From the NCBI GenBank assembly GCA_937125455.1, contig CAKZLK010000037.1:1-64000 (forward strand): 64,000 bases of DNA. The letters run 5' to 3'. Each line of letters opens with the position of its first letter. Within the stretch, counting starts at the first letter, position 1. The stretch is from an uncultured Aequorivita sp. (GTDB lineage: Bacteria > Bacteroidota > Bacteroidia > Flavobacteriales > Flavobacteriaceae). The notes under the pieces were generated by a model. It did not search any database and was not told where the DNA came from. It worked only from the letters and a program-made list of their open reading frames with translations. Below are positions 5,252 to 55,108 of this stretch, piece after piece. A program made the position numbers and the translations under genes.

Positions 5252-6952
5252 TTAATTTTTAGAAGTGTCTAAAATCTGTTTTAACATCTTTTCGGTAATT
5301 AAATAGGTTGGCTTCACGCCTGTTGTTCCCAATCCACCGGAAGCCAAAGTACTCCCAGTTTCCAATGGATTATCAGAAGCATAATACGCATATCTAACCT
5401 TCACTTTTGAACTTATACTCCGGCGAATCTTGGATGCGGATTGTATCGCTTTTTGATAATGCGCACCTTCCATCTCAAGACCGATTACATTCCACGTAGA
5501 ATTGTGGAAAAACTTCAGTACGTCACGGTTTTGAAGCGAGGTTCCTAATACAGAAATCATGGTTCCTGTATATACATTAACGTCATCATCTTTAAAAAGG
5601 GACTTCTCTAGTTTATTTTTAAAGGGGTAATTATCCCCTGTACCTTCAAAAACATGGGCTGATGGTATCATTATATCTCCCTTTCCACCTTCCAAAATTC
5701 CTGCTTTTCCCATAATAGAAACGGAGACCACATTCAAAAAATGTCGCTCTTTATTTACGTCAAAGTATGGTTTCAAAAGCTCGTCCATGGTTTCGTAGGC
5801 TTGTTCGCCAAAAGCGTAGTCCATTACAATAATAACTGGCTTTTTGGAGTCTTCAACGTTTTTTAATCCTTCGATATATGGGCTTTGTTTTATTTTGGCT
5901 GTATCTATTATTTGAACATCGATGTTGGTTCCACTTTGATCTTCAATAAATGTCATGCCTTCTGCCAAAGCAGTTTTGTTTACTTTTTCGCGTAATTTTA
6001 GATTGGCGACATTGCTTAAAGCCTCAAAAACTTCCATCGGTTTTTTCTTTGAAAATTCTGTTGGAAGTGCTTTTGGGCCATAAAGACTATTCATTACACT
6101 GTGCATATTAGCACTGATAATGTCTATTGGCCTATCCAACAAACCTTTTTCCTGTAATTTTTGCTTAATGTGATAAGCCCATTGCTCTCCATGAATATGG
6201 TGGCCTAAGCTTTCGCGCAGCACTGGACTAAAGGTGATAATACGTTTATTGTCTTCAATAATTTCCTCTATCGCAATTTTTCCAAGAAAATAAATAATAT
6301 TGAAGAACCTGTTTTCATTCTTTTCACTTGCAAAAAAGGGATATACGCTCTTAACTTCTTCAAAAGTTCTTCCTAGGAAATTAGCAGTGTGTGTAAGTGC
6401 TATTTCTTTTTCTTCTTGCGTAAGCTTCCCTTTTTTTAGAACAGCCTGTTCAAGTTTTTTCCAATCGCGGATTACTTCGCCATTCTCATTAATGAGAACT
6501 TGCTTCATAATTTTGTGCGACTCGATGAAAAGAAAAGTCAAATGCGTTAAGATATCATAGATTTCCGAACGTCCGCGGGTTATCTCAATATTCATCTGTT
6601 CCGAATCAATTCGATAGCAGTTTCTGCGTCGTTTTAGTGGTATTATCGGCTCGAAATGTGAGTTTTTATATCCTTCGTCACTTGTTAAGTTTATGAATCG
6701 ACATTCCTCTATTCCATAGGGTAAACGGTCCATAACATACAACAAGCCTTGAAGTTCTACTTTATCTTCCTTTATAGAGCCATATATCTCAGGGCGTAAG
6801 GTTAATAATGATTCGCGAAGCGTTTCTCCGGAAACTCCCATGGGCTTATAAAATCCCCGATTAAAGAGGTGGCGCATAGTGATGTACAATCGCTCAATGG
6901 CCTGTGTGCTTTCCTGTGCACGTGTTCTGGTGTGTGATTTGAGTTTATTCAT
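5252..6952 (-). CDS. DUF6909 family protein, nucleoside-phosphorylase-like C-terminus
   Basis: A 566-residue cytoplasmic protein that I recognise as the Bacteroidota family annotated DUF6909. The N-terminal half starts 'RTRAQESTQAIERLYITMRH' and contains 'GRSEIYDILTHLTFLFIES'. The C-terminal half has 'IIVMDYAFGEQAYE', 'VSIMGKAGILEGGKGDIMIP', 'GTMISVLGTSLQNRD' and 'VIGLEMEGAHYQKA'; the last resembles the 'xMExxG' region of purine nucleoside phosphorylases and AMP nucleosidases. Function unproven. ATG at 6952 is chosen over an in-frame GTG at 6970, since MNKLKSHTRTRAQ matches the usual family start. A TATCTTTG element ends six bases before this ATG, so a leaderless transcript is possible. It follows the GH3-like gene by 17 bases. 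Confidence 0.85.
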   Translation of the reverse strand: MNKLKSHTRTRAQESTQAIERLYITMRHLFNRGFYKPMGVSGETLRESLLTLRPEIYGSIKEDKVELQGLLYVMDRLPYGIEECRFINLTSDEGYKNSHFEPIIPLKRRRNCYRIDSEQMNIEITRGRSEIYDILTHLTFLFIESHKIMKQVLINENGEVIRDWKKLEQAVLKKGKLTQEEKEIALTHTANFLGRTFEEVKSVYPFFASEKNENRFFNIIYFLGKIAIEEIIEDNKRIITFSPVLRESLGHHIHGEQWAYHIKQKLQEKGLLDRPIDIISANMHSVMNSLYGPKALPTEFSKKKPMEVFEALSNVANLKLREKVNKTALAEGMTFIEDQSGTNIDVQIIDTAKIKQSPYIEGLKNVEDSKKPVIIVMDYAFGEQAYETMDELLKPYFDVNKERHFLNVVSVSIMGKAGILEGGKGDIMIPSAHVFEGTGDNYPFKNKLEKSLFKDDDVNVYTGTMISVLGTSLQNRDVLKFFHNSTWNVIGLEMEGAHYQKAIQSASKIRRSISSKVKVRYAYYASDNPLETGSTLASGGLGTTGVKPTYLITEKMLKQILDTSKN

Positions 6953-6969
6953 TGGATACAAAGATAACA

Positions 6970-8472
6970 CTAATTTTGGGGCTGGATTTGTATTAAAGCA
7001 TCAGCAATTTTACGGTCGTTGGAAAGGCGCGGCACTTTGTTTTGACCGCCTAGCTTGCCTTGAGATTTCATAAATTTTTGAAAACTATCTTTTTTTAGAG
7101 AAGCAATTTTTAGTGGTTGAAGCACTTTCCCTTTAATCAAATCTTGATAATATGAGTTTTGTAGCTGCATTTCTACATCGAGGAATTCGGCTACTTTTTT
7201 TTGATTTTCTGGTGCACTTTCAAATTCAACAAGCCATTCGTGATAGGGCAGTTGTCCTTCCAATGGTGTAATTTGTGGTGCAACAGTGAATTCTGTAATA
7301 GAAAAATTGAATTTTGACATGGCTTTATGCATTGCCGCTTCCACTTCTTTGCCAATTACATGTTCGCCAAAGGCTGAAATAAAATGTTTTATCCTTCCAG
7401 AAACAATTACGCGATAGGGTTTGGTAGAAGTAAACTGTACGGTATCTCCCAGATTATAACCCCAAAGACCTGCATTTGTTGAAATAATCATCACATAATT
7501 AACACCTATTTCCACTTCACCAATAGTCAGTCGTTTAGAGTTTTCCTCAAAAAAAGTGTTGGCTTCAACGAATTCATAAAAAATTCCTGAGTTCAAAAGC
7601 AACAACATCCCCTTTTCTTTTTGTTTATCCTGAAAGGCAAAAAAACCTTCACTGGCAGGAAACAATTCAATACTATCCACTTTTCTTCCAATTAAACCTT
7701 CAAACTTGGCGCGATAAGGTTCAAAATTTACGCCGCCATAAATGAATAGGTTGAAGTTTTTAAAAAGATCGCCAACTTTCTTCCCTGTATTTTTCTGAAG
7801 TTTTTCAAAATACATTTGCACCCACGAGGGAATCCCGCTTATTACTGTCATATCCTCATTCTTGGTCTCTTCAACTATAGCATCCACTTTGGTTTCCCAA
7901 TCTTCAATGCAGTTGGCTTCCCAACTTGGCAAGCGGTTTTTTTGTAAATATGCAGGTACATAATGGGCCACAATTCCTGAAAGCCTACCTGTTTTAATAC
8001 CGTTTTTTTCATGCATTTCCGGGCTTCCCTGTAGAAAAATCATTTTACCATCTACAAAATCGGCTTTTCCAGTTTCGTTTATGTAGCATAAAATTGCATT
8101 TCGTGCTGCCTCAATATGATGAGGCATTGATTGTTTTGTGAGCGGAATGAACTTCGCGCCAGAAGTGGTACCAGATGTTTTAGCAAAATAGAGTGGTTTT
8201 CCTGGCCACATTATATTTTCTTCTCCCGAAACCACGCGTTCAACATACGGTTTCAACTCTTCATAGTCACGTATGGGAACTTGTTTTGCAAAAGTTTCAA
8301 AAGAATTAATGTTTTCAAAATTATGATCCTTACCAAAAGCAGTATCCTTTGCTTCAGAAATCAGTTTTGCAAAAACTTTTTGCTGCGTTTCAACAGGTGC
8401 GGACGACCACTTTTGGATTTTTGCTACGACTATTTTGGCAAATATTTTTGCTCCGATGGATTTTAAGGACAT
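6970..8472 (-). CDS. GH3 auxin-responsive promoter family protein (acyl-adenylate-forming)
   Basis: A 500-residue member of the GH3 family, which in plants conjugates amino acids to acyl acids through an adenylate; bacterial substrates are unknown. The ATP-binding motif 'AKTSGTTSGAKFIPLT' (about residues 97-112), 'YGGVNFEPY', 'ELFPASEGFFAFQ' and 'LWGYNLGDTVQFTS' with the later 'VSGRIKHFISAFGEHV' are all present, so the adenylation core looks intact. Bacterial GH3-like proteins are common in Bacteroidota. It precedes the DUF6909 gene in the same direction. Confidence 0.92.
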   Translation of the reverse strand: MSLKSIGAKIFAKIVVAKIQKWSSAPVETQQKVFAKLISEAKDTAFGKDHNFENINSFETFAKQVPIRDYEELKPYVERVVSGEENIMWPGKPLYFAKTSGTTSGAKFIPLTKQSMPHHIEAARNAILCYINETGKADFVDGKMIFLQGSPEMHEKNGIKTGRLSGIVAHYVPAYLQKNRLPSWEANCIEDWETKVDAIVEETKNEDMTVISGIPSWVQMYFEKLQKNTGKKVGDLFKNFNLFIYGGVNFEPYRAKFEGLIGRKVDSIELFPASEGFFAFQDKQKEKGMLLLLNSGIFYEFVEANTFFEENSKRLTIGEVEIGVNYVMIISTNAGLWGYNLGDTVQFTSTKPYRVIVSGRIKHFISAFGEHVIGKEVEAAMHKAMSKFNFSITEFTVAPQITPLEGQLPYHEWLVEFESAPENQKKVAEFLDVEMQLQNSYYQDLIKGKVLQPLKIASLKKDSFQKFMKSQGKLGGQNKVPRLSNDRKIADALIQIQPQN

Positions 8473-51017: not shown

Positions 51018-51025
51018 TACTTTTG
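51018..51025 (+). promoter_or_regulatory. -7 promoter element of dus
   Basis: TACTTTTG matches TAnnTTTG and ends 19 bases before the dus start codon. Confidence 0.5.
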
Positions 51026-51044
51026 CACTTCTAAAGAAAAGAAA

Positions 51045-52037
51045 TTGCCAAAAATTGGAAACATACAATTGCCAGACTTTCCGTTGCTTCTCGCACCAAT
51101 GGAAGACGTAAGCGACCCACCTTTCCGGGCTCTTTGCAAAGAGCAGGGCGCTGATGTGGTTTTTACTGAATTTATCTCTTCCGAAGGGCTTATTCGCGAT
51201 GCGGCTAAAAGTGTGATGAAGCTTGATATTTATGAAAAGGAGCGTCCCGTGGGCATTCAGATTTTTGGTGCCGTTTTGGAATCTATGTTGCGCAGTGTTG
51301 AAATAGTCGAGGCCAGCGGTCCAGATATGATTGACATCAACTTTGGCTGTCCCGTGAAAAAAGTGGTTTCAAAAGGTGCTGGTGCCGGAATATTAAAAGA
51401 TATCGATTTAATGGTAAGCCTTACCGAAGCAATGGTGAAACACACCAAACTTCCCATTACCGTAAAAACCCGCTTGGGGTGGGATCACGATTCCATTAAA
51501 ATTATGGAAGTTGCCGAACGTTTACAGGATGTAGGCTGCCAAGCTTTGTCTATTCACGGTCGTACCCGCGCTCAAATGTATAAAGGCGATGCCGATTGGA
51601 AACCGATAGCAGAAGTGAAAAACAATCCACGTATGCACATTCCCATCTTTGGAAATGGCGATGTGGATACTCCTGAAAAAGCAATGGAAATGCGTGACAA
51701 ATACGGTTTGGACGGTGCAATGATTGGCCGTGCAAGTATTGGTTATCCTTGGTTTTTTAAAGAAGTAAAGCACTATTTTAAAACGGGAGAACACTTACCA
51801 GCACCAACAATGCAAGAACGCGTTGATGCCGCCAAACGTCATCTGCAAATGGCCATAGACTGGAAAGGGGAAACCCTTGGCGTTTTTGAAACCCGTCGTC
51901 ATTATACCAACTATTTTAAGGGTATCCCAAACTTTAAGGAATACCGAATGAAAATGGTAACGAGCGATGATTCTGCCTCTGTTTTTGAGGCTTTTGATGA
52001 AGTTTTAGAAACATTTGGGGATTATGAATTTGTTTAA
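51045..52037 (+). CDS. dusB: tRNA-dihydrouridine synthase
   Basis: FMN enzyme that reduces uridines in the tRNA D-loop. The 330-residue protein has 'LAPMEDVSDPPFRALCKEQG', 'VFTEFISSEGLI', catalytic Cys102 in 'DINFGCPVKKVVSKGAGAG', 'ITVKTRLGWDHDSI', 'LSIHGRTRAQMYKGDADW' and 'GLDGAMIGRASIGYPWFFKE'. TTG at 51045 is the likely start, since the protein (MPKIGNIQLPDFPLLLAP) matches the family from its first residue and no closer ATG exists. The last 88 bases are duplicated in divergent form at 53059-53146, and the last 20 or so bases again at 52061. Confidence 0.94.
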   Translation: MPKIGNIQLPDFPLLLAPMEDVSDPPFRALCKEQGADVVFTEFISSEGLIRDAAKSVMKLDIYEKERPVGIQIFGAVLESMLRSVEIVEASGPDMIDINFGCPVKKVVSKGAGAGILKDIDLMVSLTEAMVKHTKLPITVKTRLGWDHDSIKIMEVAERLQDVGCQALSIHGRTRAQMYKGDADWKPIAEVKNNPRMHIPIFGNGDVDTPEKAMEMRDKYGLDGAMIGRASIGYPWFFKEVKHYFKTGEHLPAPTMQERVDAAKRHLQMAIDWKGETLGVFETRRHYTNYFKGIPNFKEYRMKMVTSDDSASVFEAFDEVLETFGDYEFV

Positions 52038-52060
52038 GGTTACTGAGTGTAGTCGAAGTA

Positions 52061-52083
52061 TGGGGATTATGAGTTTGCTTAGG
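52061..52083 (+). repeat. Second copy of the dus 3' terminal sequence
   Basis: TGGGGATTATGAGTTTGCTT repeats, with small changes, the last 21 bases of dus (TTGGGGATTATGAATTTGTTTAAG). It follows a TACTGAGTGTAGTCGAAGTA repeat and lies 23 bases after the dus stop. Confidence 0.75.
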
Positions 52084-52097
52084 TTTTTGTGTAAATA

Positions 52098-52130
52098 AAA
52101 AAACCTTCCCCTAATAGAGGAAGGTTATAT
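52098..52130 (-). terminator. Terminator of the lipoprotein gene (minus strand)
   Basis: The inverted repeat AACCTTCC...GGAAGGTT (52102-52126) is followed by seven T residues on the minus strand. It closes the 52149-52919 unit. Confidence 0.8.
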
Positions 52131-52148
52131 TGATTACTCCAATTAATT

Positions 52149-52655
52149 TTACTTTTGGATGGTTATTTTCCAAGGTGCTTCTAAATTATTTAATCTTTTT
52201 ATCAGGCTATCGTTCTTATAGATATCAAAATAGCGAAAATCTGGATATCTCGCACTATCTCTACTACGAAGAGTATCAATTTCTGAAATACCTTGATAAC
52301 GTAACAATAATAATTGATTTGTTACCCATTCAGTATCTTCTTCTGGCTCTTGGCCAGACTCCCAGCCTATGCCTAAATCAAATGGCCCAAATACTCTTTC
52401 CCCAAAAACATCTGAATAATCCGAATCAATAGGCAATTGAAACCAGTCTCCTTGAAAAATCAATTCATCGCCTTCGTTGAGATATGCTCCTTTTGCTTCA
52501 ACTTCTCCTAAATTAAATGGAGATCCATCTGCTTTTTGAAGGTTCAAAAAGACATTATATTCTGCTGGAAGTCCATTTCTAGGGTTGTTTTCTTCTTTAT
52601 TGCAAGATGAAATCAGTAATAGAGAAAATATAGATATTAAATAAAATGATCTCAT
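52149..52655 (-). CDS. Hypothetical lipoprotein
   Basis: A 168-residue protein with a lipoprotein signal peptide (MRSFYLISIFSLLLISSC, Cys18). The mature part contains aromatic- and acid-rich strands ('NVFLNLQKADGSPFNLGEV', 'GDELIFQGDWFQLPIDSDYS', 'FGPFDLGIGWESGQEPEED') and ends 'NLEAPWKITIQK'. I know of no family. It follows the secreted small protein by 4 bases, so they form one unit, located between partial copies of the dus 3' end and therefore probably part of an inserted segment. Confidence 0.72.
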   Translation of the reverse strand: MRSFYLISIFSLLLISSCNKEENNPRNGLPAEYNVFLNLQKADGSPFNLGEVEAKGAYLNEGDELIFQGDWFQLPIDSDYSDVFGERVFGPFDLGIGWESGQEPEEDTEWVTNQLLLLRYQGISEIDTLRSRDSARYPDFRYFDIYKNDSLIKRLNNLEAPWKITIQK

Positions 52656-52659
52656 AACG

Positions 52660-52919
52660 TTATTTTTTTAAGATTAATTTTTTAGTAAAAATTCCTGTTT
52701 CTCCTTCAATGTTTACAGTATTATTTATTAGAATATCCACTAGTTCTTGATTTTTCACAAAAAATCTATCCAAAGTGTATTCTTCAGAATTTATTGTTGT
52801 ACCACATCCAATAGAAGGTTCTGGATTATTTTGAGCTAAAAGCACAAGAGGAATTGTTAATAAAAAAGACAGTAAACTTTTTTTAAAAAATGGTGGGGGG
52901 GGGGGGAATTTTTTCTCAT
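52660..52919 (-). CDS. Small secreted protein, reading frame broken at a poly-G tract
   Basis: From ATG at 52919 the frame runs MRKNS-PPP then into a 12-base C run (G on the plus strand) and stops early (about 20 residues). With a tract of 10 or 13 instead of 12, it would be continuous with the downstream frame, giving a signal-like 'FFKKSLLSFLLTIPLVLLAQ' followed by 'NNPEPSIGCGTTINSEEYTL' and ending 'GETGIFTKKLILKK', which resembles the last part of a T9SS type-A sorting domain. A GTG at 52845 gives only 61 residues with no complete signal. So this is either a phase-variable gene switched off, or a damaged remnant; the protein looks like an N-terminus joined directly to a tail. Confidence 0.5.
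52895..52906. repeat. Poly-G homopolymer tract (12 G)
   Basis: Twelve consecutive G residues in AT-rich DNA, at the start of the small secreted gene on the minus strand. Such tracts slip during replication, and the reading frame depends on their length. Confidence 0.9.
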
Positions 52920-53058
52920 AACTTAGAAAATTTAAAGATTAATAAAATTTCTGGGGAGTTAAGATTATTCAATAGTATAGATTTATCCGTTATAAACCAA
53001 AGTTTACCGATAAAAAACAAAGTAAATTTTTAGTTTTATCGTAATTTGCACTTCAATA

Positions 53059-53146
53059 GAAAATGGTAACAAGCGCTGATTCTGCCTCCGTTTTTGAGGC
53101 TTTTGATGAGGTTTTGGAAGTTTTTGCAAATTATGAGTTTGCTTAA
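53059..53146 (+). pseudogene. Divergent 3' fragment of a dus gene
   Basis: The 88 bases align without gaps to the last 88 bases of dus (51950-52037): I count 13 mismatches, about 85% identity. Translation would be 'KMVTSADSASVFEAFDEVLE' then 'VFANYEFA', against 'KMVTSDDSASVFEAFDEVLE' then 'TFGDYEFV'. Most changes are at third positions, so it evolved as coding sequence or came from a related strain, but the fragment has no start and no upstream portion. Confidence 0.85.
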
Positions 53147-53205: not shown

Positions 53206-53862
53206 ATGCAGAGGCTCAAAATACTAAAGACCCATTATATTACCCACAACGTTAAGCGTTTTGTTCTAGAAAAGCCTTCAAATTTTGAATATAGTCCAGG
53301 GCAATCAGCATATATATCCATTGGCTTACCAGGCTGGGAGGACCAGAAAAGACCGTTTACCTTTTCTTCATTGCAACATTGGGATTATTTAGAATTTATC
53401 ATCAAAATATATGAAGACCACAAGGGAGTGACTGCACAATTGGGCAAGCTCAATACAGGTGACGAGCTGTTACTTCATGACATTTTTGGAACAATTCAAT
53501 ATAAAGGGCCCGGTATATTCATTGCTGGCGGAACAGGAATTACCCCTTTTATTGCAATCTTTAGAGCACTTTTTGAGAGTGGAAACCTGCGGAACCTTGC
53601 GCTTTTGTATTCAAATAAAACCAAGGATGACATCATTTTACACGATGAACTAACAAAGATGTTGGGCCCTGCCTATAGGAATGTATTCACCCAAGAAGGA
53701 GTAATTGGTTTTCGAGAGCGCAGAATTGACCGTAAATTCCTTATAGAGACCATTGGGGATTTTAGTTCTCGTTTTTATGTTTGTGGTCCTGAGATTTTTA
53801 CTGCAGAGATTTGTGATGCGTTGATAAGTTTGGGCGCAAATCCAGAATATCTGATCATTTGA
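53206..53862 (+). CDS. FAD-binding oxidoreductase, ferredoxin/flavodoxin reductase-like
   Basis: A 218-residue short flavoprotein reductase of the FNR family. N-terminal FAD-binding barrel: 'VKRFVLEKPSNFEYSPGQSA', then 'KRPFTFSS' (RxxT/S FAD motif). NAD(P)-binding half: 'GPGIFIAGGTGITPFIAIFR' (GxGxxP-like GGTGITP), 'NLALLYSNKTKDDIILHDEL' and the terminal 'FYVCGPEIFTAEICDALI'. There is no ferredoxin domain, so it needs a separate electron acceptor. It lies just after the dus fragment. Confidence 0.85.
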   Translation: MQRLKILKTHYITHNVKRFVLEKPSNFEYSPGQSAYISIGLPGWEDQKRPFTFSSLQHWDYLEFIIKIYEDHKGVTAQLGKLNTGDELLLHDIFGTIQYKGPGIFIAGGTGITPFIAIFRALFESGNLRNLALLYSNKTKDDIILHDELTKMLGPAYRNVFTQEGVIGFRERRIDRKFLIETIGDFSSRFYVCGPEIFTAEICDALISLGANPEYLII

Positions 53863-53902: not shown

Positions 53903-55108
53903 TTAAACCACCAACTTCTCCCTCACTCTGCTCGATGCTATTTTTGAAGCAATAATCCCCAAGATACTTATTGTTGCAAAAACAATCACAACATTTATAA
54001 GCTTCAGTTTTACGGGATAGGCCAGCGTGCTTGTTATGGCCACAAATTCAAATTTTAGTTGTGCCAGTACGGCAAGTATTCCTAAGAAAATCCCAAACAA
54101 TCCACCAAGCAAAGTCATTAACGTTCCCTGCAGAAAAAAGATTCTGCGTATTTCGGGCAACGATGCGCCCATGTTATAGAGCGTTTTTATGTTTTTTCGC
54201 TTATCCAAAACCATCATTATTATTGAGCCAACCACATTGAAAAGCGCAATAATTAACACCAAAGTGAAGATTAAGTAAACTGCAATGTTTTCGGTATTCA
54301 GCATTTTATAAAGCGCATCGTTTTGTTGGATGCGGTTTTTGATAAGAATTTTCGAGGGAAAAATTTTATCAATTTCGTTGCGCACATTTTCTTCGGAAGC
54401 GGTTGGCAACAATTTCATTTCAACGGAAGAAATTTTTGTGCTATCCAACGATAACAGCTTTCGGGCGAAGTCCAAATCAGAAAAAACATACTTTGCATCC
54501 AAATCTTCATTTACTTGATATACTCCAGAAACCACAACATTTTCTTTATTAAAAGCGTCGGAAGGATTCAATGCGTTTAATTGTCCAGTTCCTGGTTTTG
54601 GCACATAAATTTCCAATAAACTTGAATAATCATTGACGCCCATGGATAGCTTTGCAATTGTGGAAAGTCCAACAACTACTTGGTGTTCGCCGGGAACGAA
54701 CCATTCTCCAAAATACATTATACTGTCAAGTTGGGTGACTTTTCCGTATAAAGAATCTACACCTTTAATGAAAGATATATGATTTTTGCCTTTATAATGA
54801 AGAAAAACACGCTCCTCAATTATTTCTGAAAAGCTTTCGATTCCTTTTATGTTCTTGAGTTGGTTTCTTTGCGCTTCTGAAAGCGTGATTGTTTTTCCAG
54901 TTTCGGGAAGTATTTTTAGATCGCTATCAAATTCGTCGGTAAACTGAAGGCTGAAATCCTTCAAACCTGAAAAACCAGAAAGCACTATAAATAATGACAT
55001 TGCTCCCACCACCACACCAACAGCAGCAATACCTGTAATAATGTTGATTGCATTGTTACTGCTTTTTGAAAACAAATAACGCTTAGCGATGTAGAGCGAA
55101 AAGTTCAA
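53903..55108 (-). CDS. FtsX-like permease, LolE/LolC-type lipoprotein release protein
   Basis: A 401-residue inner-membrane permease of the lipoprotein-sorting ABC transporter. N-terminal helix (about 24-46, 'IITGIAAVGVVVGAMSLFIV'), a large periplasmic domain (about 48-270), and three C-terminal helices ('AVYLIFTLVLIIALFNVVGS', 'LMTLLGGLFGIFLGILAVLA', 'LINVVIVFATISILGIIASK'). It is the LolC/E architecture with one N-terminal and three C-terminal helices. It follows rbfA by 1 base on the same strand. The cognate ATPase LolD is not in the window. Confidence 0.88.
   Translation of the reverse strand: MNFSLYIAKRYLFSKSSNNAINIITGIAAVGVVVGAMSLFIVLSGFSGLKDFSLQFTDEFDSDLKILPETGKTITLSEAQRNQLKNIKGIESFSEIIEERVFLHYKGKNHISFIKGVDSLYGKVTQLDSIMYFGEWFVPGEHQVVVGLSTIAKLSMGVNDYSSLLEIYVPKPGTGQLNALNPSDAFNKENVVVSGVYQVNEDLDAKYVFSDLDFARKLLSLDSTKISSVEMKLLPTASEENVRNEIDKIFPSKILIKNRIQQNDALYKMLNTENIAVYLIFTLVLIIALFNVVGSIIMMVLDKRKNIKTLYNMGASLPEIRRIFFLQGTLMTLLGGLFGIFLGILAVLAQLKFEFVAITSTLAYPVKLKLINVVIVFATISILGIIASKIASSRVREKLVV

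What the first reader, a model, noticed from the sequence alone, without database searches (positions are those of the whole stretch)
51950..53146. Accessory islet flanked by copies of the dus 3' end
The last 88 bases of dus are repeated, gap-free and with 13 mismatches, at 53059-53146, and the last 20 or so bases once more at 52061-52083. In between are two minus-strand genes (small secreted protein and lipoprotein), a terminator and a poly-G tract. Duplicated gene ends flanking unrelated cargo are the classic trace of an element that integrates at a gene 3' end and restores it. The substitutions are mostly third-position, so the second copy came from a related but different dus gene, not from recent duplication. 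No integrase is present, so it would be a remnant or a non-autonomous piece.
Basis: partly seen in the sequence, partly recalled or inferred. Interest (0 to 1): 0.7.

Follow-up and report, generated by a model that had tools for sequence, protein, structure and literature searches.

The report
Gene-end cassette with secreted protease remnant
A small gene cassette sits right behind a housekeeping gene in a marine bacterium; related species carry the same kind of cassette behind this gene or behind a different one, and in five of eight such places a piece of the host gene's end is repeated on the far side, which marks the cassette as an insertion although no recombination enzyme was found with it.

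Summary
In detail: the last 88 bp of dus recur at 53059-53146 (75/88), and ~21 bp at 52061. The insertion reading holds, with corrections. Of 28 same-genus genomes (Aequorivita), 27 dus sites were readable; 4 carry the cargo, 23 do not. The cargo is a secreted metalloprotease with a poly-C tract plus a lipoprotein; here the protease is an internally deleted remnant. In two other species (G008, G013) the cargo is 92-95% identical, while neighbouring core genes are 79-86% identical. Over their last 36 nt the two functional dus genes are 97% alike (rank 1 of 300 pairs), the distal copies 75%. So the gene end travelled with the cargo and the distal copy is the old resident end. The same cargo family also sits behind an RNase H gene in three genera, twice with that gene's tail repeated. 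Cargo phylogeny does not follow site. In the genus, tail copies occur at 4 of 6 cargo sites and 0 of 42 cargo-free sites. [quoted passage not shown] pylori restriction-modification genes). No integrase, fixed repeat length or transposon ends were found; the recombination step is inferred. The 21-bp third copy belongs to a separate REP-like insertion.

The parts
51045..52037 (+). dus, tRNA-dihydrouridine synthase (PF01207), intact; host gene of the insertion
   Evidence: 93-98% aa identical in 25 of the 27 other same-genus genomes (G017 86%, G018 partial)
51950..52037 (+). proximal dus tail (part of the functional gene); by analogy with G008/G013 inferred to be the end that came with the cargo
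52038..52060 (+). REP-like piece GGTTACTGAGTGTAGTCGAAGTA, independent of the cargo (present without cargo in G017 and G020)
52061..52083 (+). third, ~21-bp copy of the dus end, belonging to the REP-like insertion
52102..52126 (.). terminator-like hairpin at the 3' end of the cargo
   Evidence: read from the sequence
52149..52655 (-). cargo gene 1: lipoprotein, 168 aa, intact; no Pfam match; 64-65% aa to the dus-site homologues of G008 and G013
52660..52919 (-). cargo gene 2: remnant of a ~630-aa T9SS-type secreted metalloprotease; signal peptide and first ~70 residues joined in frame to the last ~15 residues
52895..52906 (-). 12-base poly-C tract (poly-G on +) in the 5' coding region of the protease; the ATG at 52919 is out of frame with the rest
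53059..53146 (+). distal dus tail; contiguous with the native dus-fdr intergenic flank seen in empty-site relatives; resident gene end
53206..53862 (+). fdr: FAD/NAD-binding oxidoreductase, native right-hand neighbour of dus
53903..55108 (-). FtsX-like permease gene ('abc' in the scripts), the next conserved neighbour

Best explanation
The islet is the decayed occupant of an insertion hotspot at the 3' end of dus. A cassette made of a poly-C-tract, T9SS-type secreted metalloprotease gene and a lipoprotein gene moves between Aequorivita species (and, at an RNase H gene, occurs in three genera). SHOWN by comparison: the site is empty in most relatives; in one species pair cassette and adjoining gene end travelled together, and the resident end was left as a copy on the far side; copies of 36 to ~150 bp flank the cargo at five sites; the cassette family uses two unrelated gene ends. 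INFERRED: it enters as DNA that carries the host gene's 3' end next to the cargo and recombines with the resident gene by a single crossover inside the shared tail (Campbell-type, host homologous recombination). This hands the gene a new functional end and displaces the old one. The reverse crossover between the two tails would remove the cassette cleanly and restore the empty site. INFERRED function: a phase-variable secreted protease whose lipoprotein partner may protect the producer. In this window the protease has been deleted internally and the lipoprotein kept.
For: Empty versus filled dus sites in 27 genomes. Tail copies of 30 nt or more at 4 of 6 cargo sites (one of the 6 a lone lipoprotein) and 0 of 42 cargo-free sites in the genus; in 4 of the 42 dus and the next gene overlap, leaving nothing to scan (Fisher p 8e-5). 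G008 against G013: protease 95% and lipoprotein 92% nt, but FtsX-like gene 79% and dus 86%; along the alignment identity is high in the dus tail and through the cargo, with a dip between them, and drops at the cargo's far end; last 36 nt of dus 97%, rank 1 of 300 pairs, distal tails 75%. Same cargo family at rnh with rnh tail copies in G013 and, in another genus, G312. Distal tails in G000, G008, G013 (dus) and G013 (rnh) continue into native flanks. Cargo tree rejects one clade of dus-site copies, AU p 3e-62. Own/distal tail codon differences 32 synonymous to 14 nonsynonymous over four loci, against decay of an in-place duplicate. No recombinase among the neighbouring genes scanned.
Against: No circular form, excision or intraspecific empty/filled pair was seen. 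Two cargo sites in the genus (G006 at dus; the lone lipoprotein of G008 at rnh) and G299 at rnh lack a tail copy. The second, broken protease copy of G312 has neither a tail copy nor a lipoprotein beside it. For the window itself the site-by-site test of which tail is foreign is mixed. The move between dus and rnh needs an extra step without homology. The tail-minus-body excess for G008-G013 is high but not extreme (rank 7 to 24 of 300). The distal tail may persist for another reason: in G008 and G013 it holds the stop codon of the convergent FtsX-like gene.
Confidence: 0.6

Rival explanations
1. Site-specific recombination: the cassette is a non-autonomous element, or the remnant of a larger island, moved by a tyrosine or serine integrase encoded elsewhere or lost; the tails are attL/attR.
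For: Gene-3'-end target with restoration of the gene is typical of integrases (established knowledge). Tails differ between donor and host as attP/attB would. In the G013 rnh tails the alleles of the three nearest relatives mostly side with the own copy upstream and with the distal copy in the last ~9 nt, compatible with a crossover close to the stop codon; counted over all 20 other genomes the last five differences are divided (3 to 2).
Against: No integrase among the scanned neighbours; repeat length varies from 36 to ~150 nt; two unrelated gene ends and opposite cargo orientation relative to the gene. No phage or plasmid record matched the tail-cargo region (two phage records matched only the middle of dus); in viral contigs the dus patterns matched nothing and the protease patterns gave no relative.
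Confidence: 0.2
2. One-ended, homology-facilitated illegitimate recombination of linear DNA taken up from a relative: homologous joint in the dus tail, random joint on the other side upstream of the resident tail.
For: Explains variable tail length, the cases without a tail copy (G006, G299, G008 rnh) and the absence of ends or recombinase.
Against: A random second joint should fall downstream of the gene at least as often as inside its last 150 bp; 5 of the 8 cargo sites at dus or rnh read here have it inside the tail. The number is small, so this is weak.
Confidence: 0.2
3. Ordinary duplication of the gene end followed by vertical inheritance: an old tandem duplicate flanks resident genes that most lineages lost.
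For: Loss by recombination between direct repeats would give clean empty sites; only four lineages keep cargo at dus.
Against: Cargo far more alike than core genes in G008/G013; cargo tree does not follow site; the same cargo family lies at rnh with rnh tails; distal tails 75% alike while cargo is 92-95% alike.
Confidence: 0.05
4. Function: the lipoprotein is not an immunity/inhibitor partner but an unrelated accessory or targeting lipoprotein.
For: No known domain; its structure prediction failed (pLDDT 40); the broken second protease of G312 has no lipoprotein beside it.
Against: Each of the five uninterrupted proteases found at dus or rnh, and the interrupted one of G006, has the lipoprotein beside it, and two lipoproteins persist where the protease is gone (window dus site, G008 rnh site), the pattern expected of a protective partner.
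Confidence: 0.5

Closest known systems
Insertion with long target duplication (Nobusato et al. 2000, Gene 259:99; not held; known here from passages of PMC1643837, PMC3031569, PMC4978471)
   Same: A gene block inserted between long, variable direct repeats of the target, found by comparing related genomes
   Different: Described there for restriction-modification genes, in Helicobacter pylori; here Flavobacteriaceae, a secreted protease/lipoprotein pair, repeats that are gene 3' ends, and (in the pair where it could be tested) a gene-side copy co-inherited with the cargo
Minimal mobile elements of Neisseria (definition read as a passage of PMC3082526; Saunders and Snyder 2002 not read)
   Same: Alternative whole-gene cassettes between two conserved genes, attributed to homologous recombination; the rnh-pfkB gap has five states in 21 genomes
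   Different: That definition does not include a duplicated gene end; here cassette and gene end travel together
dusA-targeting genomic islands and prophages (Farrugia et al. 2015, PMC4482086; start of abstract and one passage seen)
   Same: A dihydrouridine synthase gene as landing site, imperfect direct repeats
   Different: Those sit at the 5' end of dusA, are associated with a dedicated integrase family and have a 21-bp att consensus
Phase-variable (contingency) loci with homopolymer tracts (recalled)
   Same: Poly-C tract 13-16 nt after the A of the start codon, C10 to C12, start in frame in 2 and out of frame in 4 of the 6 tracts read
   Different: Variation inside one strain was not observed

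Membership tests
Insertion with long target duplication | Empty site with a single target copy in relatives | tested here: met
   23 of 27 dus sites lack the cargo; the dus end runs into the native neighbour region. Three of the 23 (G010, G017, G020) have a further ~20-bp copy from the REP-like insertion
Insertion with long target duplication | Long and variable direct repeat of the target flanking the insert | tested here: met
   88, ~149 and 36 nt at dus; ~90 and 54 nt at rnh; absent at three of eight cargo sites
Insertion with long target duplication | Both copies arise from the recipient's own target | tested here: not met
   In the one pair where it could be tested the gene-side copies travelled with the cargo: 97% against 75% for distal copies over 36 nt; codon differences 32 syn to 14 nonsyn. 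That this feature belongs to the original definition is my reading; the 2000 paper was not available
Integrase-driven genomic island | Integrase gene in or beside the element | tested here: not met
   No recombinase domain in the window genes scanned from lepA to pdxA; apart from overlapping reading frames the four inserts at dus hold only lipoprotein and protease genes
Integrase-driven genomic island | Fixed att core of one length and sequence | tested here: not met
   Repeat length 36 to ~150 nt; two unrelated genes. A shared short core inside the long repeats is not excluded
Integrase-driven genomic island | Target gene end restored by the incoming copy | tested here: met
   dus and rnh are intact at the tail-copy sites; gene-side tails of G008 and G013 co-inherited with the cargo
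Minimal mobile element | Different cassettes between the same two conserved genes | tested here: met
   rnh-pfkB: about 90 bp only (9), a 530-aa gene (9), protease+lipoprotein (1), lipoprotein alone (1) or ~0.7 kb other DNA (1) in 21 genomes
Minimal mobile element | Movement by homologous recombination of flanking genes | not testable with these tools
   Needs strain-level data or transformation experiments
Insertion sequence / transposon | Terminal inverted repeats and transposase | tested here: not met
   None of the 18 inverted-repeat pairs listed joins the insert borders; the insert holds only the lipoprotein gene and the protease remnant
Phase-variable locus | Homopolymer tract whose length sets the reading frame | tested here: met
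   C10 to C12 tract at 6 of the 7 protease loci at dus or rnh; frame ON in 2, OFF in 4. The broken G312 copy elsewhere has no run of 8 or more in its stretch
Phase-variable locus | Length changes within a clonal population | not testable with these tools
   No reads or replicate isolates available; homopolymer length in an assembly can itself be an error

The most novel reading that the evidence does not exclude
A class of small mobile cassettes without a recombinase of their own that carry a piece of a housekeeping gene's 3' end as their passport. They land by exchange inside that gene end, give the gene a new end, keep the old one as a scar, can leave cleanly by the same repeat, and spread a phase-variable secreted protease/protector pair between species and genera at more than one gene.
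Probability: 0.35. Interest if true: 0.72.

Novelty: new variant of a known kind. Interest (0 to 1): 0.52.

Why it matters
Much gene gain in bacteria is explained by phages, plasmids and integrases, yet many small islets show no machinery. Here a 1-3-kb islet with no visible recombinase leaves a readable footprint (new gene end, old gene end as scar) at two different genes and in two genera, with the same cargo family at the same gene in a third. The direction of gene-end replacement could be tested by sequence alone in one species pair. That makes the mode of entry of such machinery-free islets testable in harmless marine bacteria.

Tried and rejected
Full dus duplicate with internal deletion: 19 nt just upstream of the distal tail resemble the dus leader (17/19), but the promoter stretch TTTACTAC, TTCACTAC or similar that precedes the leader in the genus is absent there; left as unexplained.

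Third tail copy as part of the cargo insertion: rejected, because G017 and G020 have it without cargo.

REP-like insertions making ~20-bp duplications in general: tested on 21 sites of the own genome, 20 from the exact-pattern search and the dus site; only the dus site and one gene start (L117) stand above the control (the first run, read only part of them). Not a general rule.

Other gene-tail duplications: about 0.8 Mb scanned, no further clear case.

Lipoprotein structure: AlphaFold model too poor (pLDDT 40). The second structure job and the fold searches were not used.

Pattern scan for the protease in 84,980 genomes found only Aequorivita and the UBA3591 MAG. It is insensitive: the search of the other genome set later found relatives in G299 and G312.

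Rows dropped: G018 (contig ends inside dus) from all dus comparisons; G021 and G017 from dus-tail tables because of length differences (and the G008 table), and in the G000 and G013 dus tables only G021. In one search the G008 distal tail was set off by one codon; superseded. Gap lengths are a few bases too long for most genomes; exact values are. In one search the G312 protease was translated in the wrong frame for the identity table; corrected. Six rnh sites (G004, G010, G014, G020, G024, G027) were found but not fetched.

Changed on re-checking: gaps recomputed, four 'adjacent' gene pairs found to overlap at their stop codons, and the 530-aa gene confirmed in all nine genomes.
Full report
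OBSERVATION. The last 88 bp of dus (51950-52037) recur without gaps at 53059-53146 with 13 differences, and its last ~21 bp once more at 52061. The 88-mer has no third match at E <= 0.001 in the 3.73-Mb genome. A scan of 60-nt gene tails of 637 genes (54 in the window, 310 elsewhere in this genome, 273 in genome G013) for copies within 8 kb gave this case, one apparent pair of tandem paralogues and one hit at the 70% limit; gene starts, scanned the same way, gave two hits, one of them in the paralogue pair. The repeat is therefore not chance and not a common feature.

IDENTITY OF THE HOST. The genome belongs to one GTDB genus with 27 other held species. Three of those genomes have contigs of the same length as records of Aequorivita lipolytica Y10-2 (G008), A. 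echinoideorum JCM30378 (G006) and the MAG UBA3591 (G013), so the genus is taken to be Aequorivita (inference).

EMPTY AND FILLED DUS SITES. The stretch downstream of dus was read in 27 of 28 genomes; the 28th contig ends inside dus. In 19 cargo-free genomes dus is followed, after 49-296 bp, by the oxidoreductase fdr and then an FtsX-like gene. In four (G003, G007, G014, G015) the FtsX-like gene converges on dus and the two stop codons overlap. The window genome and G006, G008 and G013 carry a lipoprotein-plus-protease insert. The distal tail in the window continues into the same dus-fdr flank as in its empty-site relatives, and those of G008 and G013 into the same dus-FtsX junction as G007 and G015; in G008 and G013 the distal tail thus still supplies the FtsX-like gene's stop codon, which may be why that scar is kept.

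THE CARGO. In G008 and G013 the insert holds a ~170-aa lipoprotein and a ~630-aa protein. Scanned in the G013 copy, the latter has metzincin-type Pfam hits, PKD-like domains and a T9SS C-terminal sorting domain; a HEIGHNLGLRHTH zinc motif was read by eye. A poly-C tract lies 13-16 nt after the A of the start codon. At dus and rnh six of seven protease loci have it (C10 to C12): the start is in frame in two and out of frame in four, the window included. The lipoprotein is intact. dN/dS between the window copy and those of G008 and G013 is 0.11-0.13 by NG86, but dS is saturated, so this is only roughly purifying.

HORIZONTAL MOVEMENT AND GENE-END REPLACEMENT. Between G008 and G013 the FtsX-like gene is 79% and the dus body 86% identical in DNA, but the protease is 95% and the lipoprotein 92%. 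Identity is high in the dus tail and through the cargo, with a dip between them, and drops at the cargo's far end. Over the last 36 nt their functional dus ends are 97% identical, the most similar of all 300 pairs from the 25 genomes compared (median 83%), whereas their two distal copies are only 75% identical. Over 60 to 156 nt the pair ranks 3rd to 7th, and its excess over the gene body ranks 7th to 24th over all four lengths. So the gene-side end came with the cargo and the distal copy is what was there before. Summed over four loci, own and distal tails differ at 32 synonymous and 14 nonsynonymous codons; if a duplicate had simply decayed in place I would expect about one third synonymous (my own rough estimate). 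In G312 the three differences in the 54-nt rnh tails are all synonymous (read from the sequences).

A SECOND GENE END. G013 has another protease/lipoprotein pair (49-50% aa to its dus-site protease) directly behind an RNase H gene. The last ~90 bp of that gene are repeated on the far side of the cargo and continue into the native flank. Cargo orientation relative to the host gene is opposite to that at dus. Of 21 rnh-pfkB gaps read, nine have only ~90 bp, nine hold a 530-aa gene, one (G005) has ~0.7 kb, G008 has a lone lipoprotein gene and G013 the full cassette. In a family-wide sample of 397 genomes, three of them from this genus, the lipoprotein was found in three (the window genome, G299, G312; E <= 1e-8) and the protease in two (G299, G312; E <= 1e-45); only the 5 to 8 best candidates per genome were scored. 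G299 and G312 belong to other genera and carry the cassette at the same rnh site. In G312 the rnh tail (54 nt, 94%) is again repeated on the far side, followed by a 39% relative of the 530-aa gene. G299 has no such copy. Of eighteen genomes in the genera of G312 and G299, those two included, no further one carries the protease at E <= 1e-40.

ASSOCIATION. Within the genus, tail copies of 30 nt or more occur at 4 of 6 sites with cargo (dus of the window genome, G008 and G013; rnh of G013; not dus of G006 nor the lone lipoprotein at rnh of G008) and at 0 of 42 cargo-free sites, four of which leave nothing to scan because the genes overlap (Fisher p 8e-5; G013 and G008 contribute two cargo sites each, so the sites are not fully independent). 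Cargo phylogeny is split by site: G006 at dus groups with G013 at rnh, and G299 at rnh with G008/G013 at dus; a single clade of dus-site copies is rejected (AU p 3e-62; G006 was represented by a 416-aa piece). So the cassette has changed sites.

MECHANISM. Shown: insertion, co-transfer of cargo and gene end and displacement of the resident end in one pair, and use of two gene ends. Inferred: entry of DNA holding cargo plus a gene tail, with a single crossover in the shared tail by host homologous recombination; clean exit by the reverse exchange. An integrase acting in trans is not excluded, but repeat length varies, two unrelated genes and both orientations are used, and no recombinase lies among the genes scanned from lepA to pdxA. 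Which tail is foreign cannot be settled for the window itself; site-by-site support is mixed. The step that first brought the cassette from one gene to another is unexplained.

FUNCTION. A secreted, phase-variable metalloprotease with a lipoprotein partner is the best reading. The five uninterrupted proteases at dus or rnh, and the interrupted one of G006, have the lipoprotein beside them; in two places the lipoprotein stands without an intact protease (window dus site, G008 rnh site), as orphan immunity genes do. Against this, the broken second protease of G312 has no lipoprotein beside it, the lipoprotein has no known domain, and its predicted structure is not usable.

COMPARISON. [quoted passage not shown] seen here only as passages of citing papers, the 2000 paper itself not being held. 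The cassettes also fit the Neisseria minimal mobile element definition (passage read), except for the gene-end copy. The dusA islands carry an integrase and lie at the other end of the gene (listing and one passage). An integrase-driven 10-kb island with 53-bp att repeats at an Arg-tRNA is known in Riemerella anatipestifer (PMC6764341, passages), which shows what the integrase alternative would look like. A search for 'Aequorivita' with 'genomic island', and one for 'phase variation', 'Flavobacteriaceae' and 'homopolymer', found no paper; I make no wider claim about what is in print.

VERDICT. A real insertion with unusually readable footprints; a new variant of a known kind, with a decayed copy in the window and better copies in relatives.

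Noticed in passing
window 52038-52083; G017, G020 dus ends (L058, L041): A 23-25-bp REP-like piece followed by a second copy of the last ~21 bp of dus, present in three species, two of them without cargo; G010 has what looks like a decayed version.
   Followed up: partly
L117/L107 (G000:C17:155615): Another copy of the same REP-like motif lies between a 22-bp gene start and its near-copy; the 19 other REP-like sites tested besides this and dus show no such duplication.
   Followed up: partly
window 53045-53063: 19 nt just upstream of the distal tail match the dus leader (51022-51040) at 17 of 19 positions, the best match in the window; origin unknown.
   Followed up: partly
G003, G006, G007, G008, G013, G014, G015 dus loci: The oxidoreductase gene fdr is absent between dus and the FtsX-like gene in seven genomes; in four of them the two genes' stop codons overlap, and in G008 and G013 the distal dus tail still supplies the FtsX-like stop codon.
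   Followed up: partly
rnh-pfkB gap, e.g. L175 (G000): A 530-aa gene with a secretion-type N-terminus fills this gap in nine genomes (79-100% aa); a 39% relative lies behind the rnh tail copy in G312.
   Followed up: partly
L236 about 6013-8124 (G312:C2:142212): Broken second protease copy behind the 3' end of another metabolic gene, without a tail copy or lipoprotein.
   Followed up: partly
L230 5865-7014 (G299): Two different lipoprotein genes in tandem behind one protease, about 33% identical to each other.
   Followed up: no
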